Positions 11,361 to 58,895 of a stretch of 64,000 nt of DNA are shown here, piece by piece (within the stretch, counting starts at the first letter, position 1; each line of letters starts with the position of its first letter). Made by a program: the position numbers and the translations under genes. The DNA lies in assembly GCF_000383955.1 (NCBI RefSeq), contig NZ_KB913013.1, positions 3,491,694 to 3,555,693 on the forward strand, given 5' to 3'. A model generated the notes under the pieces. It saw only the letters and a list, made by a program, of their open reading frames with translations. It was not told where the DNA came from and searched no databases. The stretch is from Rudanella lutea DSM 19387. GTDB taxonomy: Bacteria; Bacteroidota; Bacteroidia; Cytophagales; Spirosomataceae.

Positions 11361-11450
11361 GCTGACGCAAAGGCCTTCGACAGGCTCAGGCTGACCTCAA
11401 ATTTGTGAGCTGCCCGTCAGCCTGAGCCTGTCGAAGGCCTTTGCGTCAGC
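11361..11450. repeat. Perfect 35-bp inverted repeat between converging genes
   Basis: Arms 11361-11395 and 11416-11450 are exact reverse complements over 35 bp, with a 20-base loop. They contain the module CCTTCGACAGGCTCAGG, known as a dispersed intergenic sequence in many genomes. The element lies between the stop at 11330 and the leftward gene ending at 11582. It has no T-tract, so it is not a simple terminator. Confidence 0.95.
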
Positions 11451-11518
11451 AACTAATTGTAAATCAGGTAGTAGAGGCCTGCGTCATCCATAATTCACGT
11501 TGGTTTAATACAGATACC

Positions 11519-11556
11519 AAAAAAGGGCCGCATCCTGATAGGAGCGGCCCTTTTTA
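11519..11556. terminator. Bidirectional terminator
   Basis: AAAAAGGGCCGC and GCGGCCCTTTTT form a stem with A-run on one side and T-run on the other. It can end the leftward barrel gene and any rightward read-through. Confidence 0.85.
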
Positions 11557-11581
11557 AGCGAAATGCAGATTGAATCGACGC

Positions 11582-12274
11582 TTACCGGCGCAAGGGCAAT
11601 TTCTGATCGCCGGGGTTGTAGTTACGGCCTACGCCGAAGTTGTAACCCAGTCCGATTGTGATCGTTTGGTTGCGCGTAACGCCGGGTGTGGTCATCACAT
11701 CGGTCAGGCCCTGCGTAAAGCGCGTGTCGATGATAAACCGCTCGCGGTTCCGCACCCGGAAGTTGAGTTGCAAGCCCGCCGTAATGCCAATGTCATAAGG
11801 CCGGGTTGAGTTGATATTGTCGAACTTATCGGCCGGAGAACCCTGCGTCGGGTCAAAATTGGCGCCCGTCCGGAAATTAACGGATGGTCCGAGCAGAATG
11901 TTAGGCCGGAAATTACCGCCATCGTTCAGGAAATAGCGGGCCGTGGGCGTGATCTCGATATAGTTGATCCGCTGGCGCGAGTTACCGTTGGTGTAGCGGG
12001 CACCGCGTTGTGAATAGAGGGCGTCGATCGCAAAACCAAAATGGCTGATGTCGCTGTACATGGCTCCTAAACCAGCCGAAAAACCGGGTAGAAATTTGGT
12101 GTCTGAAACCTGATTATTCGGAATTATCACGTCGCCACTAAATTTCGACAGATTCAGGCCCAGCCGTGGCCCGAGGCTCCACCGCTGACGCGTTTGAGCA
12201 TTGGCAGTAGCTAAGGCAATGATTATGAGCGATAACGTGAGTAATGTGCGTTGAAAAAAAGCAATCTTTTGCAT
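11582..12274 (-). CDS. Outer-membrane beta-barrel protein (porin/PorT-like family)
   Basis: A 230-residue protein starting MQKIAFFQRTLLTLSL with a signal peptide cut after ANAQ. The mature part has the alternating beta pattern of small Bacteroidota barrels (LGPRLGLNLSKFSGD, FLPGFSAGLGAMYSDI, ITAGLQLNFRVRNRERF, ITIGLGYNFG). The ATG at 12272-12274 is chosen because the in-frame extension upstream lacks signal-peptide character. It is predicted to sit in the outer membrane; no specific cargo or function can be read. It diverges from the acyl-CoA dehydrogenase gene. Confidence 0.85.
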   Translation of the reverse strand: MQKIAFFQRTLLTLSLIIIALATANAQTRQRWSLGPRLGLNLSKFSGDVIIPNNQVSDTKFLPGFSAGLGAMYSDISHFGFAIDALYSQRGARYTNGNSRQRINYIEITPTARYFLNDGGNFRPNILLGPSVNFRTGANFDPTQGSPADKFDNINSTRPYDIGITAGLQLNFRVRNRERFIIDTRFTQGLTDVMTTPGVTRNQTITIGLGYNFGVGRNYNPGDQKLPLRR

Positions 12275-12343
12275 AGTGAATTTGAATGTGTTACTGCGGG
12301 GTAAACGAGCCCACAAGATGAATGTTTGATTTTGGCCCTTCAC

Positions 12344-12374
12344 TTTCTTGAACGGTCCGGGGGGCGTACTTTTG
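12344..12374 (+). promoter_or_regulatory. Probable promoter of the acyl-CoA dehydrogenase gene
   Basis: TTTC at 12344-12347 (one mismatch to TTTG), a 19-base spacer and TACTTTTG at 12367-12374 fit the Bacteroidota promoter form. The start codon follows 40 bases later. Confidence 0.5.
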
Positions 12375-12414
12375 ACGGTTGTACAACACTACGAAGAAAT
12401 TGCATTAACAGACT

Positions 12415-13614
12415 ATGAAGCGCCCCTCCCTTTATTTTTCCGACGATCACGACCTGTTTCGGCAGAGCGTTCGGCAGTTTATTCAGACCGAAGTAGTACC
12501 CAATACCGAGGCTTGGGAGACCGCCCGGCGTATTCCGCTCTCCATTTTTGAGCGAATGGGTCAACTTGGGTATCTGGGCTTGCCATACCCCGAAGCCTAC
12601 GGGGGCTCCGACGCCGACTTCTGGTACTCGGTTGTTTTTCTGGAAGAATTGGCCCGTTGTGGCATGGGTGGGTTTACAACGGCCGTGAGTGTACACGAGT
12701 ACATGGCCGTGAATCATCTGGCTAAGGCCGGGAGCCCGGCACTGAAAGAAAAATACCTCGTGCCGGCCATTGCGGGTCAGAAAGTAGCCGCCCTTGCCAT
12801 TACTGAGCCCGATGCTGGTTCCGATGTGTCGGCTATCCGGACGGTCGCCCGCCGACAAGTCAATGCCGATACGGGGGCCGAAGAATACGTTATCAGTGGG
12901 GCCAAAACGTTTATCAGCAACGGCACCTACGGCGATTTTGTCACGCTCACGGCCCGCACCAATACCGAGGGGGCGGCCCAAAATGGACTGAGCCTGATTG
13001 TGGTCGATCTGGACAGCCCCGGCATTACCCGCACCAAGCTGAACAAAATGGGCTGGCACTCGTCGGACACGGCCGAAATTCGTTTTGATGAGGTGCGTGT
13101 GCCCGTTACCAACCTCATCGGGCAGGAAAACATGGGCTTTTACTACCTCATGGAGAGCCTGCAACTGGAGCGGCTCGTGGCGGCCATCATGGCGGTGTCG
13201 GGGGCTGATCTGGCCCTTTCGTGGACGTTGCAATACATACAGGAGCGGGAGGCTTTCGGAAAGCCTATCGGGGCATTTCAGGCCATTCGGCACAAAATAG
13301 CCGACGTGGCTACCGAAATCGAGATGGCCCGGCAGTTTGTGTACCACACCTGCTGGCTCTACACACAGGGCGAAGTGGTGGTAAAAGAATGCTCTATGGC
13401 AAAACTCTACACCTCCGAAATGCAGAAACGGGTAGTGGATACCTGCCTTCAGTTTTTTGGCGGCTACGGCTACATGGACGATTACCCCATTAGTCGGGCC
13501 TACCGCGACGCCCGCGTGGGCACCATAGCGGGTGGCTCGTCGGAAATCATGCGTGAGATTATCGCCAAAATTGTGATTGATGCCGTGGGCTACAAACGGG
13601 TGTACAAAACCTGA
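12415..13614 (+). CDS. Acyl-CoA dehydrogenase family protein
   Basis: A 399-residue flavoenzyme with all three domains: N-terminal helical (LFRQSVRQFIQTEVVPN), middle beta with the FAD/substrate motif LAITEPDAGSDVSAI, and C-terminal helical with REAFGKPIGAFQAIRHKIAD and FFGGYGYMDDYPISRAYRD. It would oxidise an acyl-CoA to the 2-enoyl-CoA and pass electrons to ETF. The usual catalytic Glu of the short/medium-chain group (YEGT motif) is replaced (TIAGGSSEIM), but a Glu in LQLERLV (about residue 252) sits where isovaleryl- and long-chain dehydrogenases carry theirs. The alignment is by eye; chain length preference is unknown. Confidence 0.94.
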   Translation: MKRPSLYFSDDHDLFRQSVRQFIQTEVVPNTEAWETARRIPLSIFERMGQLGYLGLPYPEAYGGSDADFWYSVVFLEELARCGMGGFTTAVSVHEYMAVNHLAKAGSPALKEKYLVPAIAGQKVAALAITEPDAGSDVSAIRTVARRQVNADTGAEEYVISGAKTFISNGTYGDFVTLTARTNTEGAAQNGLSLIVVDLDSPGITRTKLNKMGWHSSDTAEIRFDEVRVPVTNLIGQENMGFYYLMESLQLERLVAAIMAVSGADLALSWTLQYIQEREAFGKPIGAFQAIRHKIADVATEIEMARQFVYHTCWLYTQGEVVVKECSMAKLYTSEMQKRVVDTCLQFFGGYGYMDDYPISRAYRDARVGTIAGGSSEIMREIIAKIVIDAVGYKRVYKT

Positions 13615-13616
13615 AA

Positions 13617-13725
13617 GGGTGTAGGGTAAGTTCTTTTTTTCGACAGGATTACAGGATGTACAGGATTTTCTTCCCTAAAAATAATCCTGTACATCCTGTC
13701 GAAAAAACAAACCTGTCCTACACCC
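13617..13725. repeat. Long nested hairpin with ACAGGATT-unit arms
   Basis: Outer arms GGGTGTAGG (13617-13625) and CCTACACCC (13717-13725) enclose inner arms of TCGACAGGAT and GTACAGGATT type (about 13635-13667 with 13683-13707). The left inner arm holds an extra copy of an eight-base ACAGGAT unit. It begins three bases after the acyl-CoA dehydrogenase stop and fills most of the gap to the next gene. Similar ACAGGATT strings are dispersed in many bacterial genomes. Confidence 0.85.
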
Positions 13726-13764
13726 ACCTGAAAGACTTTCTCTCTCCAAAAACCGATTTGATGT

Positions 13765-14664: not shown

Positions 14665-14687
14665 AGACTACCGGCGGTCAGGTTTGG

Positions 14688-15167
14688 TTAGATCAGGTGT
14701 TCGGCTTTGAGTTCGCCCAGCACGATGAGGGTGGCGAAAGCCGTCCAGACGATAACCGGTACGGTCAGATACGCGGCCAGTTTCGAGATGGGTAACAGCT
14801 GGTAAATCACCAGCCCGGCAAACAGAATCACGATAATGTTGCCGATGAGCCCAAACCAGAGAGCTGAGATGTGCGTCAGTTTGGCAAAACCGAGTGTGTA
14901 GTAGGCGTAGGTGGCACACAGAAAAGCGAGGGCAAACAGCCACCATTGTGCCTGAGGCTGCGCCGTGGGTAGTAAAGCAGACCGAGCCACGCCGAGGAGC
15001 GCAAACAGGACAAACCAAATAATCGGGATTACGTAACCGGGTGGCTGGTACCACAGCCGGGGCGCAGTGTCGTTACCAAATTCCAGCCCGATAAATGGAG
15101 CCGGAATATTCACGACGGTCAGAATACCGTAAAAAATCAGGATGCTGCTGATAATGGTCCAGGCCAT
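14688..15167 (-). CDS. TspO/MBR-family membrane protein
   Basis: A 159-residue protein with five hydrophobic helices. The proline-containing start of helix two, WYQPPGYVIPIIWFVLFALLG, and the last helix with VPVIVWTAFATLIVLG match the TspO (peripheral benzodiazepine receptor) pattern, though the classical WxPP/PxW residues are partly diverged. ATG at 15165-15167 is preferred to a TTG nine codons upstream. It probably binds tetrapyrroles or sterol-like ligands in the inner membrane and may work in stress or porphyrin control. It converges on the MpaB-family gene with only 23 bases between stops. Confidence 0.8.
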   Translation of the reverse strand: MAWTIISSILIFYGILTVVNIPAPFIGLEFGNDTAPRLWYQPPGYVIPIIWFVLFALLGVARSALLPTAQPQAQWWLFALAFLCATYAYYTLGFAKLTHISALWFGLIGNIIVILFAGLVIYQLLPISKLAAYLTVPVIVWTAFATLIVLGELKAEHLI

Positions 15168-23080: not shown

Positions 23081-23100
23081 GTTTAAGCAATCGGGTAGAA

Positions 23101-23197
23101 GTGAATGTATAATGAACAATGTAAAATGGATAATTAAACTGCTGATCGTCAGCAGGCAATCCAATTATTCATTATGCATTTTACATTGCTCATTCAC
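23101..23197. repeat. Imperfect AT-rich inverted repeat with AATGTAAAATG modules
   Basis: GTGAATG at 23101 pairs with CATTCAC ending at 23197. Both arms hold the module CAATGTAAAATG in opposite orientation, offset by eight bases, and the centre is a small perfect hairpin CTGCTGA-TCG-TCAGCAG (23140-23156). It occupies about a third of the 301-base gap between the PorE-like gene and ispE; the rest of that gap shows nothing recognisable. Confidence 0.75.
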
Positions 23198-23369
23198 TTG
23201 AACGTGTCTGCCCTTCATCGCAATGAGTGGGTTGCGAAAGGTTGACATAACTAAAAACCAAAAACCATAAACGGGCTAAACCGTATTACATAAAGTACTC
23301 GATGATGTTTCGGGCCGGGCGCTCTGAAATGAGTAGTGCCTACAGGTCAGCTGCTAACGTCCGGTGCTT

Positions 23370-26735: not shown

Positions 26736-28067
26736 ATGGCTATTTTAAGTAAAGAAGAAGCCAAGCGGATTGTTGATAAAGTGTTGAGCTTTGCCAAAGC
26801 CGACGAAACAAGCGTCACCATCTCGGGTGGGCGCACGGGCAACATCCGCTACGCCCGCAACTCGGTATCGACGAGTGGCGAAAGCAATAACCTGTCGCTG
26901 GCGGTCACCTCTGTTTTCGGAAAGCGCAGCGGTACGGCAACCATCAACGAACTGGACGATGACTCGCTTGCCCGGACCGTTCGGCGGGCCGAAGAAATTG
27001 CCCGGCTGGCCCCCGAAAACCCGGAGTACGTGCCGATGCTGGGGCCACAAAAGTATCTGAACACGAAGCCCTACGCCGAAACTACTGCCAAGATAGACCC
27101 GGCTTACCGGGCCCAGGCGGCTTTTGATAGCCTGGACCCCTGCCGTAAGAAAAACCTTACTGCGGCCGGTTACCTCGAAGATTCGACCGGGTTTTTTGCG
27201 CTCGCCAACAGCAAAGGCCTGTGGGCTTACAATCAGCAGACATCCGCCGAGTTTTCGATCACCGTCCGCACGGCCGATGGTCTGGGCTCGGGTTATGCCA
27301 CCCGCGACGTTACCGATGTATCGAAGCTGAGCACCCGCGAGGCCACCGAAATTGCCATGCAGAAAGCCATGGCCTCGGTGAGTGCGCGCGCGCTGGAGCC
27401 GGGCAAGTACACCGTGATTATGGAACCGGCCGCCCTCGTGTCGAATACCGATGCCTCGCTGATGGCCGCATTGGTTCGGTCGATGGATGCCCGCTCGGCC
27501 GACGAGGGGCGTTCGTTTTTGAGTAAAAAAGGGGGTGGTACCCGCCTGGGCGAAAAACTCTTCGATGAGCGCGTCACGATTTATTCGGACCCCATGAACC
27601 CCGAAGTGCCTACATCGGCCTTTGCGGGCGATGGCCGTCCGCTGGAGCGGGTCACCTGGATTGAGAAAGGGGTCGTCAAAAACATGTCGTATTCGCGGTA
27701 TTGGGCCGAGAAAAAAGGGGTAGCGGCTATTCCGCCGGGGGGTAATTTTATCATGGAAGGCGGCACCCAATCGCTGGCCGACATGATCAAGAGCACCGAG
27801 AAGGGTATTCTGGTAACGCGCCTGTGGTACATCCGGCCGGTTGACCCGCAAACACTGCTGTACACAGGCCTCACCCGCGATGGAACGTTCTACATCGAAA
27901 ATGGGCAGATCAAGTTCCCGGTGAAAAACTTCCGGTTCAACGAGAGCCCCGTTATCATGCTCAACAATCTCGAAGCCATTGGCCGGCCGGTACGGATTGG
28001 GGGTAACCTGGTTCCACCGCTCAAAATCCGCGACTTCACGTTCTCCAGCTTGTCTGACGCTGTTTAA
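26736..28067 (+). CDS. TldE/PmbA-like protein, copy 1
   Basis: A 443-residue protein of the TldD/PmbA superfamily that lacks the HExxxH motif, as TldE subunits do. Recognisable blocks are GNIRYARNSVSTSGESNNLS, ARLAPENPEYVPMLGPQ, ARSADEGRSFL and LWYIRPVDPQTLLYTGLTRD. It should form the hetero-complex with the TldD-like protein encoded just upstream, the catalytic metal being supplied by that partner. No leader is visible at its N-terminus, unlike TldD copies, which raises the question of where the two meet. It is closely related to the protein at 30028-31365. Confidence 0.9.
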   Translation: MAILSKEEAKRIVDKVLSFAKADETSVTISGGRTGNIRYARNSVSTSGESNNLSLAVTSVFGKRSGTATINELDDDSLARTVRRAEEIARLAPENPEYVPMLGPQKYLNTKPYAETTAKIDPAYRAQAAFDSLDPCRKKNLTAAGYLEDSTGFFALANSKGLWAYNQQTSAEFSITVRTADGLGSGYATRDVTDVSKLSTREATEIAMQKAMASVSARALEPGKYTVIMEPAALVSNTDASLMAALVRSMDARSADEGRSFLSKKGGGTRLGEKLFDERVTIYSDPMNPEVPTSAFAGDGRPLERVTWIEKGVVKNMSYSRYWAEKKGVAAIPPGGNFIMEGGTQSLADMIKSTEKGILVTRLWYIRPVDPQTLLYTGLTRDGTFYIENGQIKFPVKNFRFNESPVIMLNNLEAIGRPVRIGGNLVPPLKIRDFTFSSLSDAV

Positions 28068-28090
28068 TTAATCAGGTGCTAAGCAAAGCT

Positions 28091-28169
28091 GTTACGCAGA
28101 GATGCACAGAGCCGTTTCGCCCACACCCCTCTGCGAATCTCTTAATTACTCCATGAATCTCTGCGTAAC
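28091..28169. repeat. Inverted repeat of the CTCTGCGTAAC family, copy 1
   Basis: GTTACGCAGAGAT (28091-28103) is the exact reverse complement of ATCTCTGCGTAAC (28157-28169). CTCTGCGAATCTC lies inside, and a further diverged copy, GAATCTCTGCATAACAACA, follows at 28180-28198. It sits between the first TldE and the second TldD genes. Confidence 0.85.
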
Positions 28170-28226
28170 AACCTAAACGTGAATCTCTGCATAACAACAT
28201 AATAAGGGCTCCGGCCCGCTTATTTT

Positions 28227-29867
28227 ATGAACCGCCGACACTTTAATCAACTCCTGGGCATGGGCACTGCCGGTCTGGTACTGCCCAGCCTACCCTCGCT
28301 GGGGCGATCCGTAGCCCCGGAAGCCTTGCTGGAGCCGGGGCTCGATGTAGCCCTCAAAAAGCGGCTGGCCGATGCGGCTCTCAACGCGGCTAAGTCGAAA
28401 GGGGCTACCTATGCCGACGTGCGTATTGGGCGCTACCTGAATCAGTTTGTAGTTACCCGCGAAGACAAAGTGCAGAACATCGCCAATACCGAGAGTTACG
28501 GGGTTGGGGTTCGGGTAATTGCCAACGGTTGCTGGGGGTTTGCGGCTGCGGCCGATGCCAAAAGCGAAGCCGATATGGCCCGCGCGGCCGAACAGGCCGT
28601 GGCCATTGCCAAAGCGAACGCCCGGCTGCTGAAAGAACCCGTACAACTGGCTCCGCAGCCCGGCTACGGCGAGGTTTCGTGGAAGGCTCCCATCCAGAAA
28701 AACGCGTTTGAAGTTCCGGTCAAAGAAAAAGTAGACCTGCTGCTGGGTGTCAATGCCGCAGCCATGAAAAACGGGGCCAATTACGTGAATTCGGTGCTGT
28801 TTATGGTGAACGAGCAGAAGTACATTGCCACCACCGACGGGACCTACGCCGATCAGGATATTCACCGAATCTGGCCGATTTTCAACGTTACCTGCATCGA
28901 CGCGAAATCGGGGAAGTTTGAAACCCGTAACGCCCTGAGTGCTCCGGTGGGTATGGGCTATGAGTACCTGCAAACCAACCCGTCTGACAAAGTAACCGGT
29001 ATCACGACCCGCTACAACAAGGGGTACGATATGCTCGAAGACGTGACAGCGGCCGCTCAGCAGGCCCGGCAAAAACTGACCGCCAAGTCGGTAGAAGCGG
29101 GTAAGTACGACCTCATACTCGACCCCAGTCACCTGTGGCTCACCATTCACGAGTCGGTGGGGCACCCTCTCGAACTCGACCGCGTGCTCGGCTACGAAGC
29201 CAACTTTGCGGGTACCAGTTTTGCCACGCTCGACAAGTGGCAGTCGAAAAACTTCCAGTACGGCAGCAAGATTGTCAACTTCGTGGCCGATAAGCAGCAG
29301 GTTGGCTCGCTTGGGGCTGTTGGGTACGACGATGAAGGCGTGAAAACCAAAAAGTGGGACCTCGTGCGCGATGGCGTACTGGTCAACTACCAGGCCATTC
29401 GGGATCAGGCGGCCATCATCGGCGAGAAAGAATCGCACGGTTGCTGCTATGCCGATTCGTGGGGTACGGTGCAGTTTCAGCGGATGCCCAACGTATCGCT
29501 CGAAGCGGGCAAAACACCGCTCTCGGTGCAGGATATGATCAAGGATGTGAAAAAAGGTATTTACATCATTGGCGACGGCTCGTTCTCTATCGATCAGCAA
29601 CGCTACAACTTCCAGTTTGGCGGGCAACTGTACTACGAAATCAAAGACGGACAGATTGCCGGTATGCTCAAAGACGTGGCCTACCAGTCGAACACGCAGG
29701 AGTTCTGGAACTCGTGTGCCGCCATTTGCGACGAGCGCGATTACCGGCTCGGCGGTAGCTTCTTCGACGGTAAGGGGCAACCGAGTCAGAGCAGCGCGGT
29801 GTCGCATGGGTCGGCCACTACGCGGTTCAACGGGGTTAATGTGATCAATACGGCACGGAAGATTTAA
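28227..29867 (+). CDS. TldD-family metallopeptidase, copy 2, with twin-arginine-like leader
   Basis: A 546-residue close paralogue of the protein at 24995-26638. It starts MNRRHFNQLLGMGTAGLVLP (RR leader), has HESVGH at residues 308-313 inside LTIHESVGHPLELDRVLGYE, the Cys region NSCAAICDERDY and the same C-terminus SHGSATTRFNGVNVINTARK. The two differ mainly in the leader and around residues 110-170, so this is a real duplication with both copies keeping the active-site motifs. It would act with the TldE-like partner 160 bases downstream. Substrate unknown. Confidence 0.92.
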   Translation: MNRRHFNQLLGMGTAGLVLPSLPSLGRSVAPEALLEPGLDVALKKRLADAALNAAKSKGATYADVRIGRYLNQFVVTREDKVQNIANTESYGVGVRVIANGCWGFAAAADAKSEADMARAAEQAVAIAKANARLLKEPVQLAPQPGYGEVSWKAPIQKNAFEVPVKEKVDLLLGVNAAAMKNGANYVNSVLFMVNEQKYIATTDGTYADQDIHRIWPIFNVTCIDAKSGKFETRNALSAPVGMGYEYLQTNPSDKVTGITTRYNKGYDMLEDVTAAAQQARQKLTAKSVEAGKYDLILDPSHLWLTIHESVGHPLELDRVLGYEANFAGTSFATLDKWQSKNFQYGSKIVNFVADKQQVGSLGAVGYDDEGVKTKKWDLVRDGVLVNYQAIRDQAAIIGEKESHGCCYADSWGTVQFQRMPNVSLEAGKTPLSVQDMIKDVKKGIYIIGDGSFSIDQQRYNFQFGGQLYYEIKDGQIAGMLKDVAYQSNTQEFWNSCAAICDERDYRLGGSFFDGKGQPSQSSAVSHGSATTRFNGVNVINTARKI

Positions 29868-29892
29868 CGAAGCTGAAGTCCCTAAGGAGTTA

Positions 29893-29993
29893 TTACGCAG
29901 AGAAAAATGAAGATTCACAGAGAAAAGCGTATAGAACTTCAGAGAAAAGATCTCTGCGAATCTCTCTTTCCTCCTCTGCGAATCTCTGCGTAA
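29893..29993. repeat. Inverted repeat of the CTCTGCGTAAC family, copy 2
   Basis: TTACGCAGAGA (29893-29903) pairs with TCTCTGCGTAA (29983-29993). Internal strings ATTCACAGAGAAAAG and CTCTGCGAATCTCT repeat the same units. It lies between the second TldD and TldE genes and shares the CTCTGCGAATCTCTGCGTAA core with the element at 28091. Confidence 0.85.
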
Positions 29994-30027
29994 CAACTGT
30001 GAAGAAAGGCTTCAGCCTGACGCAATT

Positions 30028-41591: not shown

Positions 41592-42242
41592 ATGAATCCA
41601 ACGAACCGAACCAAACTCTCGCGGCTGCCGAAGCGTGGCCATCACGATGCGGCCACTATTTACCCTATTCTCGATGCGGGGCTGGTGTGCCATGTGAGTT
41701 ACCAGCTCGACGGGCAACCGTTTCTGATTCCAACCGCTTACGGCCGTATCGACAACACGGTGTACATTCACGGGTCGGTGGGGAGCCACTTTTTTCGCCA
41801 GCTGGCGCAAGGAGTGCCGGTTTGTGTGGCGGTCACGCACGTCGATGGGTTGGTGCTGGCCCGGTCGGCGTTCAGTCACTCGGTCAATTACCGGTCGGTG
41901 GTGCTGTTTGGGCAAACCCGGCTGGTTGATGACCCGACCGAAGCCTGGGCGGCCCTGGAGCGCATTACTGAGCATCTGATGCCCGGCCGTTGGGCCGATA
42001 CCCGCCCACCCAGCGCAAGCGAGATGAAAAAGACGATGGTGCTGGCCATTGAAATCGAAGAGGCCTCGGCAAAGGTCCGGACTGGCAACGTCAACGATGA
42101 CCCCGAAGACCTGGACTTACCACACTGGGCGGGCGTTGTACCCGTCAGCCTACAGTACGGTGCCCCGATTCAGGACCCGCTTCAGGATGCCAGTGTGACT
42201 GTGCCGGGTTATTTGACGAATTATAAAAGAGTGAAAGAGTGA
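41592..42242 (+). CDS. Pyridoxamine 5'-phosphate oxidase-family flavin-binding protein (NimA-like)
   Basis: A 216-residue split-barrel protein. The start RLPKRGHHDAATIYPILDAG and then FLIPTAYGRIDNTVYIHGS match the PNPOx-like flavin-nucleotide-binding group that includes nitroimidazole-resistance proteins NimA. Later blocks (SVNYRSVVLFGQ, MKKTMVLAIEIEEAS) fit as well. It probably binds FMN and acts as a small reductase or storage protein. Notable: the last four residues (RVKE) and the stop codon are encoded inside the GTGAAAGA repeat arm at 42227, so the natural end of this protein may have been altered by that element. Confidence 0.85.
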   Translation: MNPTNRTKLSRLPKRGHHDAATIYPILDAGLVCHVSYQLDGQPFLIPTAYGRIDNTVYIHGSVGSHFFRQLAQGVPVCVAVTHVDGLVLARSAFSHSVNYRSVVLFGQTRLVDDPTEAWAALERITEHLMPGRWADTRPPSASEMKKTMVLAIEIEEASAKVRTGNVNDDPEDLDLPHWAGVVPVSLQYGAPIQDPLQDASVTVPGYLTNYKRVKE

Positions 42243-42353
42243 AAGAGTGAAAGAGCGAAAGGGGTGAAAGAGCGAAAAACGGCATTCCGACTGGCGACGC
42301 ACCGGTTTTACTTGTGCGTCCGCCACTCTTTCGCTCTTTCACTCTTTCACCCT
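42227..42353. repeat. Convergent-gene hairpin with GTGAAAGA-unit arms
   Basis: The left arm (42227-42277) is a run of GTGAAAGA/GCGAAAGA-type octamers; the right arm (42324-42353) is its reverse complement (CTCTTTCGCTCTTTCACTC and so on). The left arm overlaps the 3' end of the flavin-binding gene and the right arm touches the stop of the leftward aldo/keto reductase. The same family recurs at 46648. Confidence 0.9.
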
Positions 42354-43323
42354 ATTGACTCCACTCCGTGGGCGTACGGTCCCAGCGGTGGCCCTTCAGT
42401 TCGGCCAGTAGTTGTGGGTCAAGTGGGCCGGCGTCGCTGGTGGCGCAATTGGCTTCCACGTTGCGGAGTTGCCGCATACCCGGAATCGTAGTGGCCACGT
42501 CGGGGTTGCTCAGAATAAACCGCAGGGCCATTTCGGGCATGGTCATGCCAGCCGGAATGAGCGGTTTGAGCGCATCGGCATGGTCGACGCTGGCGTTCAG
42601 GTTTTCGGGGACGAAGTAGGTCGAGCGCCAGTCTTCGGCTGGGAACGTGGTTTCTTTCGTAAACGTACCCGTCAGTGTGCCTTCGTCGAATGGTACGCGG
42701 GCAATCACCCCCACGCCCAACTCGCGGCAGAGCGGGAAGAGGTTGTCTTCGGGAGCCTGGTCAAAAATGTTGTAGATCACCTGCACGCCATCAATCAGGC
42801 CCGTGCGGAGCGTGCTGAGCACATTGTCGGGCTCCCAGCGGTTTACCGAAATGCCCCAGGCCCGTACCTTACCGGCCTGGGTGAGTTTCTGAATGGCCTC
42901 TTTCCACTCGTCGCGGTTGGCCCAGGCGTCTTCCCAAACGTGAAACTGTTGCAGGTCGATGGTATCCACACCCAGGTTTTTAAGGCTCTTTTCGGTGTAC
43001 TCCACAATGTAGTCGGCCGGGAATACATCGTCAATGGAGAAGTGCGATTTTGAAGGCCACTTGCGATTTTTGGGCGGAATCTTAGTCGCGGCAAACAGGG
43101 TTTTGTCGGAATACCGCTTCATGAGGTCGCCCAGAATGGTTTCGCTCAGGCCTTCGCCGTAGCCCCAGGCGGTATCGAAAAAGTTGCAGCCCAGTTCAAC
43201 GGAACGGTCGAGGGCGCGGTCGACGGTTTCGCGCTCGGAGCCTGTCCAGCCCGCGAGGCCCCACATGCCGTAGCCAATGTCGGATACTTGCCAGCCTGTG
43301 CGGCCGAAGGTTCTGTATTGCAT
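42352..43323 (-). CDS. Aldo/keto reductase
   Basis: A 323-residue TIM-barrel oxidoreductase. It starts MQYRTFGRTGWQVSDIGYG (typical AKR opening), has the Asp-Tyr pair in FFDTAWGYGEGLSE, Lys in LFAATKIPP and His in LQQFHVWED, giving the four AKR catalytic residues. It should reduce aldehydes or ketones with NADPH in the cytoplasm. The ATG at 43321-43323 is chosen over one nine codons earlier because of the conserved opening. It converges on the flavin-binding gene across the GTGAAAGA hairpin. Confidence 0.93.
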   Translation of the reverse strand: MQYRTFGRTGWQVSDIGYGMWGLAGWTGSERETVDRALDRSVELGCNFFDTAWGYGEGLSETILGDLMKRYSDKTLFAATKIPPKNRKWPSKSHFSIDDVFPADYIVEYTEKSLKNLGVDTIDLQQFHVWEDAWANRDEWKEAIQKLTQAGKVRAWGISVNRWEPDNVLSTLRTGLIDGVQVIYNIFDQAPEDNLFPLCRELGVGVIARVPFDEGTLTGTFTKETTFPAEDWRSTYFVPENLNASVDHADALKPLIPAGMTMPEMALRFILSNPDVATTIPGMRQLRNVEANCATSDAGPLDPQLLAELKGHRWDRTPTEWSQ

Positions 43324-44744: not shown

Positions 44745-46649
44745 ATGCTAACAAAACCGCTTGAACAAACGTACTTCATTATCGACTTCGATAGTACGTT
44801 TACCAAAGTAGAGGCCCTCGACGTGCTGGGCGAAATTTCATTGATCGGCCGGCCCGACCGCGACGATGTGCTGGATCAGATTCGGACCATTACCGACCGG
44901 GGGATGGCGGGCGAGCTGTCGCTGGCTCAGTCGCTTGAGCAGAGGCTCCGCTTACTCAACGCCCACCGCGATCATCTGCCCGCGCTGATCGAGACACTCA
45001 TGACCAAAGTGTCGGACTCGTTTCAGCGTAATCGCTCGTTCCTGAGCGAACATGCCGATCAGATTTACATTGTTTCGAGTGGTTTCAAAGAGTTTATCGT
45101 GCCGATTGTGACGGCGCTGGGTGTCAAAGAAGACCACGTATTTGCCAATACGTTTGAGTACGACGAAAAAGGCAATATTGTGGGTTGCGACTGCGAAAAC
45201 CCGCTGGCTACCGACGGGGGCAAGGTGAAACTCATGCGTAGCCTGCAACTCGATGGCGATGTGTACGTGATTGGCGACGGCTACACGGATTACGAAATCC
45301 GGGAGTCGGGTCTGGCCAATCGGTTCTATGCCTTTACCGAAAACGTGCTCCGGCCCAGTGTGGTTGAGAAAGCCGATTATGTTTCACCTTCACTCGACGA
45401 TTTTTTGTTCGATAATAAATTGAGCCGCAGCCACTCGTACCCCAAAAGCCGGATCAAGGTGCTGCTGCTGGAAAACGTACACCCGGTAGCCGTGCACCTG
45501 TTTGAGCAGGAGGGCTTCAGCGTGGAGATCCGGAAAGGTGCCCTCGACGAAGACGAGCTGATCGAAGCCATTCGGGGCGTTCATATTCTGGGCATCCGCT
45601 CGAAAACCAACGTGAGTCGGCGCGTACTCGAACATGCCGACCGGCTCATTACAATCGGGGCATTTTGTATTGGCACCAACCAAATCGACCTGACGGCCTG
45701 TTCGGAGCGGGGCATTGCTGTGTTCAACGCCCCCTACAGCAACACCCGGTCGGTGGTTGAGCTGGCCATTGGCGAGATCATCATGCTGATTCGCAACGTG
45801 GTGACCAAGAGCAACAAAATGCACGAGGGTATCTGGGACAAGTCGGCCAACAACAGCTTTGAGGTTCGGGGGAAAAAACTCGGTCTGATTGGCTACGGCA
45901 ACATCGGCACCCAACTGTCGGTAGTAGCTGAGGCCCTCGGCATGGAAGTTTATTTCTACGATGTAGTGGATAAACTGGCCCTGGGCAACGCCCGCAAGTG
46001 CCGCACGCTGGAGGATTTGCTGGCCGTGTCGGACATTGTGAGCCTGCATACCGATGGCCGCAAAGACAATAAAAACCTGATAGGAGCCCGCGAATTTGGG
46101 CTTATGAAAGAGGGCGTCATCTTCCTGAACCTGTCGCGCGGGCATATTGTCGATATTCCGGCGCTGGTCGAAGCCATCAAGTCGGGCAAAGTAGCAGGGG
46201 CCGGTATCGACGTGTTCCCGTATGAGCCAAAGACCAACAGCGAGGAGTTTATCAACGAGCTGCGGGGGCTGCCCAACGTGATTCTGACCCCGCACATTGG
46301 CGGTAGCACCGAGGAGGCTCAGGAAAACATCGGCACGTTTGTACCGGGCAAATTGCTGGAGTACATCAACAATGGTAGCACCTACGGGAGCGTCAACTTT
46401 CCCGAACTCCAGCTGCCCCTCCTGAAAGAGTCGCACCGGCTGCTGCACATTCACCGCAATGTACCGGGGATTTTGTCGCAACTGAACCAGATTTTTGCCA
46501 AGCACCACATTAACATCAAAGGGCAGTACCTCAAAACCGACGAACACATTGGTTATGTAATCACCGACATTGCCAAGGAGTACGACGAAGATGTGGTTGC
46601 TGAACTGCGGAATGTGGAAAACACGATTAAGTTTAGGCTACTTTACTAA
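44745..46649 (+). CDS. serA: Fusion: HAD phosphoserine phosphatase-like domain + D-3-phosphoglycerate dehydrogenase
   Basis: A 634-residue two-enzyme protein. Residues about 8-225 are a HAD-IB phosphatase of SerB type: nucleophile motif DFDST (Asp14, Asp16), VSSGF, and the metal-site GDGYTD near residue 180. From about 234 comes a full phosphoglycerate dehydrogenase (KVLLLENVHP, NAD loop GLIGYGNIGTQL, FLNLSRGHIVD, catalytic TPHIGGSTEEAQ) ending with an ACT domain (LLHIHRNVPGILSQLNQIFA) that may give serine feedback. It would catalyse the first and last steps of phosphoserine-pathway serine synthesis; the aminotransferase gene follows. The symbol covers the main part only. Confidence 0.92.
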   Translation: MLTKPLEQTYFIIDFDSTFTKVEALDVLGEISLIGRPDRDDVLDQIRTITDRGMAGELSLAQSLEQRLRLLNAHRDHLPALIETLMTKVSDSFQRNRSFLSEHADQIYIVSSGFKEFIVPIVTALGVKEDHVFANTFEYDEKGNIVGCDCENPLATDGGKVKLMRSLQLDGDVYVIGDGYTDYEIRESGLANRFYAFTENVLRPSVVEKADYVSPSLDDFLFDNKLSRSHSYPKSRIKVLLLENVHPVAVHLFEQEGFSVEIRKGALDEDELIEAIRGVHILGIRSKTNVSRRVLEHADRLITIGAFCIGTNQIDLTACSERGIAVFNAPYSNTRSVVELAIGEIIMLIRNVVTKSNKMHEGIWDKSANNSFEVRGKKLGLIGYGNIGTQLSVVAEALGMEVYFYDVVDKLALGNARKCRTLEDLLAVSDIVSLHTDGRKDNKNLIGAREFGLMKEGVIFLNLSRGHIVDIPALVEAIKSGKVAGAGIDVFPYEPKTNSEEFINELRGLPNVILTPHIGGSTEEAQENIGTFVPGKLLEYINNGSTYGSVNFPELQLPLLKESHRLLHIHRNVPGILSQLNQIFAKHHINIKGQYLKTDEHIGYVITDIAKEYDEDVVAELRNVENTIKFRLLY

Positions 46650-46723
46650 AGAGTGAAAGAGCGAAAGAGTGAAAGAGCGCGGGAGCTACTTCACTCTTTC
46701 GCTCTTTCACTCTTTCGCTTTTT
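46648..46723. repeat. GTGAAAGA-unit hairpin filling the gap between serA fusion and serC
   Basis: Left arm about 46648-46677 (GAGTGAAAGAGCGAAAGAG type) and right arm 46691-46723 (TCACTCTTTCGCTCTTTC type). The right arm ends directly before the ATG of the aminotransferase at 46724. It shares the unit with the element at 42227. Confidence 0.9.
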
Positions 46724-48716: not shown

Positions 48717-48731
48717 TCTTGGCTCTTACCA

Positions 48732-48762
48732 AACCTGTAAGGTCTTTGAGACCTTGCAGGTT
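48732..48762. repeat. Short inverted repeat between converging genes
   Basis: AACCTGTAAGGTCT (48732-48745) and AGACCTTGCAGGTT (48749-48762) pair with one mismatch around a 3-base loop. The element sits between the rightward stop at 48716 and the leftward stop at 48769. The same core (CCTGTAAGGTCT/AGACCTTGCAGG) is a known dispersed sequence type in Bacteroidota. Confidence 0.8.
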
Positions 48763-48768
48763 ACCTCG

Positions 48769-54620: not shown

Positions 54621-54644
54621 TTTGCAAACACGGTTTGCAACCCC

Positions 54645-55031: not shown

Positions 55032-55047
55032 GAGTAAGGGGTAGAAA

Positions 55048-55114
55048 GGAGAAGGGAGGAAAGGAGAAGGTCTACGCAAATGCGGCATAACCTTTCTCCT
55101 TTCCTCCCTTCTCC
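55048..55114. repeat. GGAGAAAGG-type purine/pyrimidine hairpin between converging genes
   Basis: Left arm 55048-55070 (GGAGAAGGGAGGAAAGGAG..) and right arm 55091-55114 are reverse complements with one mismatch. It lies between the rightward stop at 55031 and the leftward thiolase stop at 55129. The same sequence family recurs at 58812. Confidence 0.9.
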
Positions 55115-55128
55115 GTTTTCCTTCTTTT

Positions 55129-56337: not shown

Positions 56338-56400
56338 TATCGACTAGTTTAAAGTTTGTTTTGAGATGAAAGTTAGACAAGTGCCGTAAAACGTCTCCGT

Positions 56401-56667
56401 TCAGGCAGGGGTATCGTGAAAGGAAATAATGGATTGTCGAATTGCTTCCATTTTATCGGCTGGAAACTCTTTACCATATAAACGTTCGGCCAGACCTGCG
56501 ATCAATTGACCTTGCGTCCATTCAGGGTGCTTATAGCGAAGTTGGTCCAATACAAGCTGGCGTCCATCCTCGATCATCGATAAGCATACCTCAATGCGTT
56601 GGCCTGGCTTCATGGCATTGAAAATGGCTAGCTGCTTTTCGTAGATATAATAAGGGGTATCGTTCAT
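56401..56667 (-). CDS. Small partner protein of a nucleotidyltransferase
   Basis: An 88-residue protein of mostly helical character: KPGQRIEVCLSMIEDGRQLV, LRYKHPEWTQGQLIAGLAER, YGKEFPADKMEAIRQS. Its ATG overlaps the nucleotidyltransferase stop as ATGA, so the two are translationally coupled. Small proteins of this kind next to nucleotidyltransferase genes recur widely, in a toxin-antitoxin-like layout, but I do not know a confirmed function. Base composition is AT-richer than neighbours, as for its partner. Confidence 0.75.
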   Translation of the reverse strand: MNDTPYYIYEKQLAIFNAMKPGQRIEVCLSMIEDGRQLVLDQLRYKHPEWTQGQLIAGLAERLYGKEFPADKMEAIRQSIISFHDTPA

Positions 56668-57188
56668 AGAAGTCCGAATGTGTTTAAATGGAGTTGTTGC
56701 AGCCAGTGTCTTACATACTCGATGTCTATGTTGTTATCAGCGATCAAATGTTCGATGTCTATAATTTGCTGTCCACTTTGGTAGTCTTGTATCCAAATCA
56801 ACTTCGACAGAATTAGATCCTCTACAGTAACTACCCAAGCCTCGACTCCATAAACCATATCTCGTCGTCGGCGGGCAAATTCTGTATGACGAAATAAATC
56901 TTGTTTACGGATAACAAAATCGACTTTGTAACCACTCGCTTCGTCAATAACGTTAAAAAAGCCTTTTCTACGAACTTCTTCCTCAACAGACGGTCGGTGG
57001 AAGTAAAAGCCTTTGCTAAAAATCCTCGAAAGAGTATCTACGTCTTTTTCTTCTAGTACAATAATTAAGTCAATATCTCTTGTAAAACGAGGTATCGTGT
57101 AAAGACTCATGGCTATACTTCCAGAAAGCATATACGGGATCTGGTGGTTTTCCAGTTGAGTGCATACATACTGCAAGAGTTCTTTCAT
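56664..57188 (-). CDS. Nucleotidyltransferase-family protein (toxin-antitoxin or AbiEii-like)
   Basis: A 174-residue protein with the nucleotidyltransferase pattern: G-S at residues 23-24 in LSGSIAMSLYTIPRFTRDID, where the two Asp (38, 40) of RDID form the metal site. Later residues (VEDLILSKLIWIQDYQSGQQ) match the C-terminal helices of related proteins. It overlaps the 88-residue gene by four bases. The pair has much lower GC than its surroundings (sampled 60-base stretches 32-42 percent against about 73 percent in the adjacent epimerase), a sign of recent transfer. Confidence 0.82.
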   Translation of the reverse strand: MKELLQYVCTQLENHQIPYMLSGSIAMSLYTIPRFTRDIDLIIVLEEKDVDTLSRIFSKGFYFHRPSVEEEVRRKGFFNVIDEASGYKVDFVIRKQDLFRHTEFARRRRDMVYGVEAWVVTVEDLILSKLIWIQDYQSGQQIIDIEHLIADNNIDIEYVRHWLQQLHLNTFGLL

Positions 57189-57212
57189 AGAAGCAAGTTA
57201 CAAGGCAATCGT

Positions 57213-58136
57213 TTACTTCAACAAGTCCTCAAGGGCGTCGCGTAGCTTGGGGAATTTATACGCAAACGTGGTTTCGTGGGCAATCCGCTTGTTGAGGACC
57301 AGACTGCTGCCGAGCACGGTTACGGCCAGTTCGCCAAAAGCGAGCTTGATGGCAAAGGCCGGTACTTTGGGCAGAATGAGCGGCCGCTTGAGCACACTGG
57401 CGATTTCGCGGGTAAGGGCCTCGTTGGTAACTGGGTCGGGGGCTACGCCATTGTAAGCGCCTTTCCACGACTCTGTTTCGACGGCCTGGATAAACAACTG
57501 ACAGATATCGTCGACGTGAATCCACGAAATATACTGCTGACCCGACCCGATGGCGGCCCCGGCCCCCAGCCGAATGGGTTGTACCAGTTTGGGCAAGGCC
57601 CCGCCCGCCATGGTGAGCACCACGCCCGTGCGGATGCGTACCGTGCGAATGGGCTGCCCCTCGGTTGTTTTGATGGTGTCAATTTCCTCAACCGATCGCT
57701 CCCAGGCACGGGTCACCTGCGCCAGAAAATCGCTGCCCGCCGGGCTGGTTTCGGTCATGGGCCGGTCGCCGGTATCGCCCCCGTAGTACCCGATGGCCGA
57801 TGAGGACACGAAAACCCGCACCCGGTTGGGCGTGTTGCGCAGCGCCTGGGCCAGCAACGCGGTCGATTGCGTGCGGCTTTCCAGAATTTCGCGCTTGCGG
57901 GCGTCGCTCCAGCGTTCGTCGGCAATACCGGCCCCAGCCAGGTGAATAATGGCATCGGCGTCGGCAACGGCCCGCGCATCGATCTGGCTTTTTCGGACAT
58001 CCCAATGGTACACCTGCACATTGGGAACCGACTGCTCAGAGCGGCTTAGCCAGGCAACCGTGTGGCCTTTCTGTTGTAAGAGTTGGGTGAGTCGGCGGCC
58101 AATGCTTCCGGTGCCGCCCGTGATCAGAATAGTCAT
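57213..58136 (-). CDS. TIGR01777-family NAD(P)-dependent oxidoreductase/epimerase
   Basis: A 307-residue protein starting MTILITGGTGSIGRRLTQL (GGxGxxG nucleotide loop), with IIHLAGAGIADERWSDARKR, VSSSAIGYYGGDTGDRPM and a C-terminal extension RPLILPKVPAFAIKLAFGEL typical of the YfcH/TIGR01777 family (DUF1731 end). ATG at 58134-58136 is preferred since it starts right at the Rossmann strand. Function is unproven for the family; a sugar-nucleotide or cell-division-related epimerase has been suggested. It is co-oriented with the nucleotidyltransferase pair but differs sharply from it in base composition. Confidence 0.93.
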   Translation of the reverse strand: MTILITGGTGSIGRRLTQLLQQKGHTVAWLSRSEQSVPNVQVYHWDVRKSQIDARAVADADAIIHLAGAGIADERWSDARKREILESRTQSTALLAQALRNTPNRVRVFVSSSAIGYYGGDTGDRPMTETSPAGSDFLAQVTRAWERSVEEIDTIKTTEGQPIRTVRIRTGVVLTMAGGALPKLVQPIRLGAGAAIGSGQQYISWIHVDDICQLFIQAVETESWKGAYNGVAPDPVTNEALTREIASVLKRPLILPKVPAFAIKLAFGELAVTVLGSSLVLNKRIAHETTFAYKFPKLRDALEDLLK

Positions 58137-58260
58137 AATGCAGAGAACAACCAATACCACCTCACATAAATGGTTTGGTCAGTTATGAAGTAACGGTTAA
58201 TACCAATTATCTGTTTCTTTGCAGCGAAGAACTGTTCGTTGTTACCTGTTCACTGTGCCT

Positions 58261-58812
58261 ATGCCCGCTATCGATCCCGATCTCAAACGTGCCATTGTCC
58301 GGCTCCCCGAAAACGAAAAAGATAAACTGCTGCTACGGCTCATTACCAAAGATGCGCTGCTGCTCGAACGGCTTCAGTTTGAGTTGATTGAGCATGGGCA
58401 GACGGTCGACGAGCGCCGGATGGTGATTCGAGAGTTTATCGACCGCACGGTACGGCTCAAGCAGGATTCGGCGGGGTGGATTATGATGGACATGCGTACC
58501 ATCAGCGGCTACATAACCCGGCATGGCAAGGTAACCAAAGACAAGTATGGGGAGGTAGAATTGGGAATGTATATGCTCAATTCGTTTTTCGAAGAGCGCC
58601 CCGATCAGCTACGTACCTACAATAGCCGCACAGACAAATGTGCGTTGTACATTGCCAAACGGACCGATCAAATCCTGAAAAAGCTGCTCAAACTCGACCC
58701 CGATTATTTTGTGGAATTTGCCGACGACATGAATTCGCTCCTCCACCGTGTACATACTTACTGCCCGGCCCACTACGCCCGGCAACTTGGGTTACCAAAG
58801 GAATTTGAATAG
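58261..58812 (+). CDS. Conserved hypothetical helical protein
   Basis: A 183-residue protein I do not recognise. It is helical and charged: DPDLKRAIVRLPENEKDKLL, then RLQFELIEHGQTVDERRMVI, and later KRTDQILKKLLKLDPDYFVE with a C-terminus HARQLG-like segment (YARQLGLPKEFE). No signal, membrane helix or catalytic motif is visible, so it is likely a cytoplasmic protein. ATG at 58261 is preferred, though a GTG two codons earlier is possible. Similar-sized proteins appear conserved among Cytophagales, by my impression only. It converges on rimK across a GGAGAAAGG hairpin. Confidence 0.7.
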   Translation: MPAIDPDLKRAIVRLPENEKDKLLLRLITKDALLLERLQFELIEHGQTVDERRMVIREFIDRTVRLKQDSAGWIMMDMRTISGYITRHGKVTKDKYGEVELGMYMLNSFFEERPDQLRTYNSRTDKCALYIAKRTDQILKKLLKLDPDYFVEFADDMNSLLHRVHTYCPAHYARQLGLPKEFE

Positions 58813-58895
58813 GAGAGAAGGGAGGAAGGAGGAAAGGAGAAAGGTTAGCCACGCTTGCGTTCCTTTCTCCTTTCCTCCTTCCTCCCTCCTCCCTC
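58812..58895. repeat. GGAGAAAGG-type hairpin, second copy
   Basis: Left arm 58812-58844 and right arm 58862-58895 are near-perfect reverse complements made of GGAGGAAGG/GGAAAGGAGAAAGG units. Its first base is the last base of the stop codon of the 183-residue protein, and it ends five bases before the rimK stop. Same family as 55048. Confidence 0.92.

What the first reader, a model, noticed from the sequence alone, without database searches (positions are those of the whole stretch)
11361..58895. A dispersed family of intergenic hairpins, several with arms built from 7-8 nt tandem units
At least eleven inverted repeats lie between genes, distinct from ordinary GC-stem/T-tract terminators: 11361, 13617, 23101, 28091, 29893, 42227, 46648, 48732, 55048, 58812, plus a diverged partial copy at 28180. 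Three sequence families occur twice within 64 kb (GTGAAAGA at 42227 and 46648; CTCTGCGAAT at 28091 and 29893; GGAGAAAGG at 55048 and 58812). Five lie exactly between converging genes. The purine-rich arms are internally repetitive, so copies must have spread or expanded and then paired. I know CCTTCGACAGGCTCAGG- and ACAGGATT-type repeats as dispersed intergenic sequence, but not as one system with a shared architecture. They may be terminators, RNA stabilisers or REP-like mobile elements.
Basis: partly seen in the sequence, partly recalled or inferred. Interest (0 to 1): 0.72.

Follow-up and report, generated by a model that had tools for sequence, protein, structure and literature searches.

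The report
Dispersed hairpin elements carrying small genes
Most of the hairpins scattered between genes in this bacterium look like stripped-down copies of a mobile DNA element whose complete form carries one small gene in the hairpin loop, the layout of a long-puzzling insert known from ribosomal RNA genes.

Summary
In detail: the named inverted repeats lie between genes and recur genome-wide. The genome is Rudanella-like (Spirosomaceae). In 644 kb, 95 of 450 gaps hold a hairpin (0 of 221 shuffled gaps); 59 carry word labels, mostly with 7-8-nt periodic arms.

Main result: the same words bracket two small genes, PF05635 (23S rRNA intervening-sequence/S23 protein) and PF13366 (GxxExxY). Strong inverted arms flank 17 of 20 such genes in the genus against 3 of 312 ordinary genes. 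Held-out Spirosomaceae and cyanobacterial plasmid loci agree. Window hairpin 28091 is a GxxExxY element that lost 367 nt and keeps both gene ends. Between two species, sites often keep a hairpin but change family; one element is inverted; two cargo pairs show 25 synonymous and 0 non-synonymous differences.

Best reading: mobile, intervening-sequence-like elements between cistrons, mostly cargo-less; not RAYT/REPs, not terminators as a class. Transfer mechanism, RNase III processing and cargo function are inferred. The set is mixed: 13617 is an ISKra4-type MITE; 11361 and 48732 are unassigned. My searches of an open-access library found no paper making this link.

The parts
11342..11469 (.). 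Hairpin with CCTTCGACAGGCTCAGG core arms, nested in weaker outer arms, between convergent genes. Class unassigned (no cargo-bearing copy seen in the genus).
   Evidence: G001 has a different nested hairpin at the same site
13609..13733 (.). ISKra4-type MITE: terminal inverted repeats GGGTGTAGG..., ACAGGATT hairpin nested inside, 8-bp target duplication ACCTGAAA that includes the stop codon of the upstream gene; empty in G001 (36-nt gap).
23099..23199 (.). AATGAATAATG-type word hairpin (TAATG-type words bracket S23 genes L141-L143 in this genus). In G001 the same hairpin is split by a REP-like insert.
28090..28196 (.). ACGCAGAG/CTCTGCG word hairpin: remnant of a GxxExxY element. Against G001, 367 nt are missing at about 28111; the first codons and the C-terminal coding tail of the gene remain. 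The piece near 28180 is one extra direct copy of a right-arm unit.
29888..29998 (.). Second ACGCAGAG/CTCTGCG word hairpin (GxxExxY word class). G001 has AGTTTAC words (below my hairpin threshold) and G002 CACGGAG words at this site.
42225..42356 (.). GTGAAAGA word hairpin filling the gap between convergent genes. G001 has an AATGAATAATG hairpin here.
46648..46715 (.). GTGAAAGA word hairpin filling the gap between a SerA-like gene and a class-V aminotransferase gene, 8 nt before the next start codon. Relatives have GTGAAAGA, GGAGGAAAGG, GATTGAGTGA, GTGAATGA and other hairpins here.
48731..48764 (.). Short perfect hairpin AACCTGTAAGGTC/GACCTTGCAGGTT between convergent genes; unassigned.
   Evidence: same-type sequence in G001
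55036..55126 (.). GGAGAAAGG polypurine word hairpin; same type at the same site in G001. No cargo-bearing copy seen in the genus.
58813..58895 (.). Second GGAGAAAGG polypurine word hairpin, fills the gap between convergent genes.

Best explanation
Most of the hairpins are cargo-less copies of a mobile, intervening-sequence (IVS)-like element. The full element is: 5' arm of 7-9-nt tandem words, one small gene (S23/IVS four-helix-bundle protein or GxxExxY PD-(D/E)XK protein), then the same words inverted. It sits between cistrons, typically within a few nucleotides of the upstream stop codon. Shown here by comparison: the arm-cargo association, one solo copy made by internal deletion, presence/absence and family replacement between species, one element in opposite orientation at the same site, shared loops in some families, and purifying selection on two cargo pairs. 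Inferred: the elements move; the long RNA stem lets them ride in an operon transcript harmlessly, probably because RNase III cuts it out as it does for 23S rRNA IVSs; the cargo protein recognises the word arms and mobilises or maintains full and solo copies in trans.
For: Flanking arms at SW score 16 or more: 17 of 20 cargo genes in the genus (S23 11/12 in three genomes; GxxExxY 6/8 in four) against 3 of 312 ordinary genes and 0 of 77 of 80-220 aa (Fisher 9e-23). The S23 expectation was noted in the same batch as the gene search and before any flank was read. Held-out Spirosomaceae loci at 13 or more: S23 21/28 (shuffles 0/84), GxxExxY 16/25 (1/75). Phylum: 17/30 and 20/30 at 14 or more, shuffles 1/90 and 0/90. 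Cyanobacterial plasmids: 9 of 9 fetched S23 loci exceed all of 20 shuffles each, at least one pair (Trichormus, Scytonema) near-identical. Word class follows cargo: 28/30 v 2/29 (pattern chosen after seeing data), 13/16 v 1/21 held out, p=2e-6. Solo from full: window 28068 gap v G001. Same-family loops match 16/118, cross-family 0/1157. Orthologous sites: word hairpin in both 16, here only 8, G001 only 9, neither 141. Opposite orientation L125/L126 and replacement L136/L138. 16:0 and 9:0 synonymous:non-synonymous over 112 and 100 codons. Coxiella 23S IVS has the same layout with heptamer repeats and is RNase III excised (PMC4990558 passages).
Against: No transposition event or enzyme activity was seen. 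By eye no target duplication was evident in the 11 alignments except at two MITE sites. Arms fell below threshold at 3/20 genus loci (16), 7/28 and 9/25 held-out loci (13) and 13/30 and 10/30 phylum loci (14). In the phylum set, flanks of different loci also match (25/234 and 24/231 at 14 or more) because words are shared, and the two flanks match in the same orientation at 2/30 and 8/30 loci. Of the 16 loop matches 13 come from one family (AATGAATAATG); GTGAAAGA copies share no loop, so movement as a unit is shown for few families. L125/L126 could be an assembly error in a draft genome. Of five fetched GxxExxY plasmid loci, Treponema (11 v shuffle maximum 12) and Fusobacteria (direct repeats) do not fit and Gemmatirosa is ambiguous. 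GGAGAAAGG, GATGAG, GACATTAG, CCTTCGACAGG and ACCTGTAAGGTC families have no cargo copy among the 20 genus loci. GxxExxY protein distance does not predict arm similarity (66/500). RNase III cleavage is untested here. Family labels are my own regular expressions.
Confidence: 0.7

Rival explanations
1. Bidirectional or unidirectional transcription terminators, or 3'-end RNA stabilisers, kept by selection at fixed sites while their sequence drifts.
For: Same-strand word hairpins start a median of 4 nt after the upstream stop. Sites keep a hairpin while the label changes (8 v 8 / 9 v 141, p=1.7e-5; conservative recount 5, p=0.002). Divergent gaps are avoided (3 of 69, p=0.02). PMC8355165 (listing only) proposes hairpin clusters as terminators.
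Against: 22 of 43 same-strand word hairpins end 25 nt or less before the next start, against 0 of 7 short-loop hairpins (p=0.014). Convergent enrichment is not significant (13/69 v 46/381, p=0.13), whereas short-loop hairpins are strongly convergent (p=6e-11). Only 9 of 59 have an A/T run of 5 at the base, but short-loop ones have only 5 of 25, so this last test is weak. It does not explain cargo genes in the loops.
Confidence: 0.13
2. REP/REPIN elements mobilised by a RAYT (Y1 transposase).
For: Four PF01797 matches in the genome; small, palindromic, extragenic, hundreds of copies by extrapolation.
Against: Three RAYT-like loci have inverted flanks with different sequences (CCCCGTAGGGG, CAACCCCGTTGGGGTTG, GCTTCGCTGGGCC types), the fourth none. 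Arms here are long periodic words with varied loops. A repeat resembling one RAYT flank is itself inserted into the 23101-site hairpin in G001.
Confidence: 0.05
3. MITEs of ordinary DDE insertion sequences.
For: 13617 is one: ISKra4-like ends, exact 8-bp duplication, similar copies (of five more read, two with an exact 8-bp duplication, two with a near one, one with none), a 1245- and a 1266-bp IS with the same ends in G003, and an ISKra4-type transposase in the former (170.6 bits, below the 205 cut-off).
Against: By eye the other sites compared show no such duplication, and their words bracket S23/GxxExxY genes. I did not search for transposases bracketed by the words.
Confidence: 0.07
4. Locally arising tandem repeats: replication slippage and fold-back repair create and homogenise periodic palindromes at each site, with no mobile element.
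For: 7- and 8-nt periodicity (26 and 8 of 37 significantly periodic arms). Related words at one site (GTGAAAGA, GTGAATGA, GTGATTGA). Unit number differs between orthologous elements. GTGAAAGA copies share no loop.
Against: The GTGAAAGA word recurs genome-wide, loops are shared within four families and never between families, and words follow the cargo gene across genomes.
Confidence: 0.08

Closest known systems
23S rRNA intervening sequences (IVS) with S23 protein ORF (Leptospira, Coxiella and others)
   Same: Stem of complementary ends, S23 ORF in the loop, tandem heptamers of variable number near the 5' end, sporadic distribution (Coxiella, PMC4990558 passages). A Rudanella-genus S23 matches the solved S23 2GSC.
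   Different: Here the elements lie between protein genes, several S23 copies per genome with an extrapolated 600 word hairpins, a second cargo type (GxxExxY), and two cargo pairs under purifying selection; the Coxiella ORF is reported as decaying.
Cyanobacterial short tandemly repeated repetitive (STRR) heptanucleotides
   Same: Intergenic heptamer arrays (recalled); on nine Nostoc, Calothrix, Trichormus, Scytonema, Aulosira and Picosynechococcus plasmid loci heptamer-like arrays are the arms of S23 genes.
   Different: STRR sequences and properties are recalled, not read; chromosomal STRRs were not tested.
TAACTGA direct repeats of Beggiatoaceae, cyanobacteria and some Bacteroidetes (PMC4679880 passages)
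   Same: Intergenic heptamers, patchy cross-phylum distribution.
   Different: Reported as direct repeats near start codons with one indirect case; no cargo link in the passages read.
REP/REPIN-RAYT and GTAG/CGTC REPs (PMC3116915, PMC3733652; listing only)
   Same: Small dispersed extragenic palindromes.
   Different: The RAYT-like genes here have other flanking repeats; longer periodic arms; different protein partners.
Avd accessory protein of diversity-generating retroelements
   Same: Reported to resemble PF05635 in sequence and structure (PMC10053308 passages).
   Different: Whether reverse transcriptases accompany these elements was not tested.

Membership tests
23S rRNA IVS element | Terminal complementary stem | tested here: met
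   Most loci, not all:
23S rRNA IVS element | S23/IVP (PF05635) ORF in the loop of full-length copies | tested here: met
   12 of 12 S23 loci in the genus have arms of 13 or more; GxxExxY replaces S23 in the other class
23S rRNA IVS element | Located inside 23S (or 16S) rRNA | tested here: not met
   All window hairpins lie between protein genes; I therefore call them IVS-like, not IVSs
23S rRNA IVS element | Excised by RNase III | not testable with these tools
   Only stem length and predicted energy are known
REP/REPIN (RAYT-linked) | RAYT gene flanked by the same repeat | tested here: not met
MITE of a DDE insertion sequence | Terminal inverted repeats shared with an autonomous IS, target duplication | tested here: met
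   For 13617 only
MITE of a DDE insertion sequence | Same for the other hairpins | tested here: inconclusive
   No duplication seen by eye in the 11 alignments apart from the two ACAGGATT MITE sites (13615, 100181); terminal repeats were not searched genome-wide
Intrinsic terminator | Short GC stem and T-run, at ends of transcription units | tested here: not met
   As a class, by position; the T-run test is weak
Rfam RNA family | Match to a curated covariance model | tested here: not met
   0 matches in the window at gathering scores
Cyanobacterial STRR | Listed STRR heptamer sequences | not tested
   STRR sequences recalled only; no source text read

The most novel reading that the evidence does not exclude
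A cross-phylum superfamily of intercistronic 'word-arm' hairpin elements, with rRNA IVSs as its rRNA-resident branch and cyanobacterial heptamer arrays as another. The heptamer words are multiple binding sites for the element's own S23 or GxxExxY protein, which mobilises full and cargo-less copies in trans, so that hundreds of bacterial intergenic hairpins are the non-autonomous members.
Probability: 0.5. Interest if true: 0.88.

Novelty: new variant of a known kind. Interest (0 to 1): 0.77.

Why it matters
The functionality and origin of 23S rRNA intervening sequences were still called unclear 25 years after their discovery (PMC4990558 passages), and GxxExxY proteins are named only for a motif. 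If intact S23 and GxxExxY genes are the full-length form of elements present in hundreds of cargo-less copies, their mobility, binding specificity and effect on operon mRNA become testable in non-pathogenic bacteria. Annotation would also gain an explanation for many intergenic palindromes, and for S23 or GxxExxY genes found inside unrelated gene pairs (S23 between nrdB and nrdA and between cas10 and cmr3; GxxExxY between fabD and fabG).

Tried and rejected
RAYT as mobiliser: rejected. Rfam: no match in the window. Terminators as a class: rejected, with weak points noted in the rivals. One homogeneous family: rejected (13617 is a MITE; 11361 and 48732 unassigned). A search for 23S rRNA in the genus gave only partial rRNA matches, so the direct rRNA comparison was not possible. 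GxxExxY arm-protein covariation: not significant. The automatic family table has errors that I checked by eye: 23081 is one family split by an insert; 242549 and 119647 carry hairpins missed by the threshold in one species; two 'different' pairs are related words. The conservative recount (5 different-label sites, p=0.002) is. A GxxExxY relative in the PDB by sequence: none at E 0.01. Gene calls are from my own codon-usage script, not an annotation. Loci are best-scoring matches, not random ones (one search also holds the genus loci); three truncated loci were skipped (L251, L271, L272). Paper searches; no listed paper appeared to link S23 or GxxExxY to word-arm hairpins, but I read passages of only five papers (PMC4990558, PMC4679880, PMC8934634, PMC10053308, PMC10910872), and subscription papers are missing.
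Full report
WHAT IS THERE. The window lies at 3,491,694-3,555,693 of the main contig of a 6.55-Mb genome. A class-V aminotransferase of the window is 97% identical to Rudanella paleaurantiibacter, whose contig NZ_WELI01000002.1 has the same length as contig C23 of the unnamed relative G001; I treat G001 as that species. In a 400-kb sample of 20 spaced stretches, 59 ungapped hairpins of score 15 or more were found, none classed as inside a gene (two at stretch ends not classed), and none in two shuffles of the same DNA.

ANATOMY. Over 644 kb (19 of the 20 stretches plus window and the next 200 kb; one stretch left out because it overlaps), 95 of 450 gaps hold a gapped inverted repeat of 15 or more, against 0 of 221 shuffled gaps. 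By my labels 59 are word hairpins (three of them of types without tandem words), which extrapolates to roughly 600 per genome. The commonest types are AATGAATAATG 10, AGTTTTC 8, AACAGTGAACAACG 7, GGAGAAAGG 7 and GTGAAAGA 7. Of 57 word arms of 20 nt or more, 37 exceed the 95% point of shuffled arms for periodicity; the period is 7 in 26, 8 in 8, 9 in 2, 6 in 1. Word hairpins number 43 in 312 co-directional, 13 in 69 convergent and 3 in 69 divergent gaps. In co-directional gaps they start a median of 4 nt after the upstream stop (32 of 43 within 15 nt), and 22 of 43 end within 25 nt of the next start codon.

CARGO. Comparing orthologous gaps, G001 and G002 each showed a GxxExxY gene lying between the arms. 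All eight PF13366 matches of the four genomes of the genus have inverted words around them, with scores 63, 45.5, 31, 28.5, 17.5, 16.5, 13 and 12.5; the two lowest are near what some ordinary genes give. I noted the expectation that PF05635, the S23/IVS protein, would carry the other word families; the gene search ran in the same batch and the flanks were read afterwards. All 12 S23 matches, in three of the four genomes, have such arms, with scores 13 to 41.5, and the words are mostly those of solo hairpins: GTGAAAGA, AACAGTGAACAACG, AGTTTTC, GGAGTGA, GCAGTAG, TAATG. In 312 ordinary genes with similar geometry only 3 reach 16, and 0 of 77 small ones, against 17 of 20 cargo genes; 16 ordinary genes reach 12.5.

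GENERALITY. PF05635 occurs in 157 of 198 and PF13366 in 101 of 198 sampled Bacteroidota genomes. Among 30 best-scoring loci each, 17 and 20 have arms of 14 or more. Shuffles give 1 of 90 and 0 of 90. Two stricter controls are higher: mixing flanks between loci gives 25 of 234 and 24 of 231, because words are shared between loci, and comparing the two flanks in the same orientation gives 2 of 30 and 8 of 30. In held-out Spirosomaceae loci, 21 of 28 S23 and 16 of 25 GxxExxY genes have arms of 13 or more (shuffles 0 of 84, 1 of 75; three truncated loci skipped). Words of the form CRCNRAK or ACAGGAT mark GxxExxY arms (28 of 30 against 2 of 29 S23 arms, pattern chosen after seeing data; held out 13 of 16 against 1 of 21). 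S23 arm similarity tracks protein similarity (0 of 500 permutations reach it); GxxExxY does not (66 of 500). On plasmids, the 9 cyanobacterial S23 loci that I fetched (of 21 records with a match) all have inverted arms above all 20 shuffles, including copies between nrdB and nrdA and between cas10 and cmr3; at least the Trichormus and Scytonema loci are near-identical and not independent. Of five GxxExxY plasmid loci fetched (of 8 records), Sphingomonas (between fabD and fabG) and Bernardetia fit, Gemmatirosa is ambiguous (its inverted words look like parts of two neighbouring hairpins), Treponema and Fusobacteria do not fit.

SOLO COPIES DERIVE FROM FULL ONES. Aligning the window gap 28068-28226 with G001 shows the same arms. 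G001 has a 136-aa GxxExxY frame between them, of which the window keeps the first codons and the C-terminal coding tail, with 367 nt missing. At a second site G000 has a shortened GxxExxY frame (101 aa) between arms and G001 a more decayed remnant with arms and gene fragments.

MOBILITY AND TURNOVER. Over 264 kb, 174 orthologous gaps were scored: word hairpin in both species 16, only here 8, only in G001 9, neither 141 (p=6e-11). Of the 16, eight carry different labels. Taking away one mislabel and two related-word pairs leaves five, still more than expected (p=0.002). In the gap of window 46648 across 52 Spirosomaceae loci, 3 loci lack the upstream gene, 10 have a 452-558-nt gap filled by a small ORF, 19 have a hairpin inside the gap and 20 have none called (three of these look like hairpins below threshold; gap lengths 0 and 9 nt in two). 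The hairpins include GTGAAAGA, GGAGGAAAGG, GATTGAGTGA, GTGAATGA, GCCGCAATATTGCGGC and GTTAAACG types. Loops match within families in 16 of 118 pairs and between families in 0 of 1157. Thirteen of the 16 are AATGAATAATG pairs and one each AACAGTGAACAACG, GGAGTGAGGAG and GACATTAG, so movement as a unit is supported for a few families only. One GxxExxY element stands in opposite orientation between the same flanks in the two species with 96% identical protein (an assembly error in the draft is not excluded); one site holds two S23 genes only 51% identical in the two species. Two orthologous cargo pairs show 16 and 9 synonymous and no non-synonymous differences over 112 and 100 codons, so the cargo appears to be under purifying selection.

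EXCEPTIONS. 13617 is a MITE: ends close to GGGTGTAGGACAAGTT (26+21 hits in this genome at 2 mismatches, 8+3 for the reversed control), 8-bp duplication ACCTGAAA containing the upstream stop codon, empty site in G001, and in G003 a 1245- and a 1266-bp IS with the same ends, the former with an ISKra4-like transposase below the model's cut-off. All five further copies read contain a nested ACAGGAT hairpin; two have an exact 8-bp duplication, two a near one, one none. 11361 and 48732 have no cargo-bearing relative among the 20 genus loci. GGAGAAAGG hairpins (55048, 58812) fit the architecture, but no cargo copy was seen in the genus.

MECHANISM. The layout, a stem with heptamer words and an S23 ORF in the loop, is that of the 23S rRNA IVS. 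[quoted passage not shown]). A Rudanella-genus S23 is related to the solved S23 protein 2GSC, and PF05635 is reported to resemble the retroelement protein Avd (PMC10053308 passages). The GxxExxY proteins here keep GxxE, D and ExK residues expected of a PD-(D/E)XK nuclease (motif recalled; sequences). I therefore propose selfish elements that tolerate life inside transcripts by folding, and probably by RNase III cutting, with the cargo acting on the words in trans. The first half (element identity, turnover, cargo link) is supported by computation; the second half is inference.

VERDICT. Papers searched; no listed paper appeared to link these genes with these hairpins, within an open-access library and mostly seen as listings.

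Noticed in passing
G000:C1 4583292, 4132599, 5438816, 3481896 (L031-L034): Four Y1-transposase (RAYT-like) matches; three are flanked by their own REP-like inverted repeats (CCCCGTAGGGG, CAACCCCGTTGGGG, GCTTCGCTGGGCC types), a separate repeat system in this genome.
   Followed up: partly
G002:C88:142560-142871 (L139): An S23 frame runs through the GCAGTAG arm (read as TAYCLLP repeats) into further coding sequence, giving one ORF of about 490 aa: an apparent fusion made by translating the hairpin arm.
   Followed up: no
L285, L293, L295: Cargo genes sit between fabD-fabG, nrdB-nrdA and cas10-cmr3. The listing of the 23S rRNA IVS protein among CRISPR-associated domains (PMC10910872 figure legend) could reflect chance insertion.
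   Followed up: no
A-coordinate 213930-214600 (window plus L209-L218), against the S23 locus L141 of G001: Where G001 has an S23 element, this genome has other DNA including a MazF/PemK-like frame (resemblance recalled, not searched).
   Followed up: no
window 11342-11469, L042 16520-16622, G001 at the 42243 gap: GCTGACGC/GCGTCAGC appears at or near the tip of hairpins of several word families, as if a small palindrome nests in loops.
   Followed up: no
window 26736-31365: Three tandem TldD/PmbA-type genes separated by two CTCTGCG hairpins; G003 has further matches to the middle gene in the same contig.
   Followed up: no
L288: The Fusobacteria GxxExxY gene is bracketed by direct, not inverted, copies of an ATTTAATCCGTGTACCTAT repeat.
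   Followed up: no
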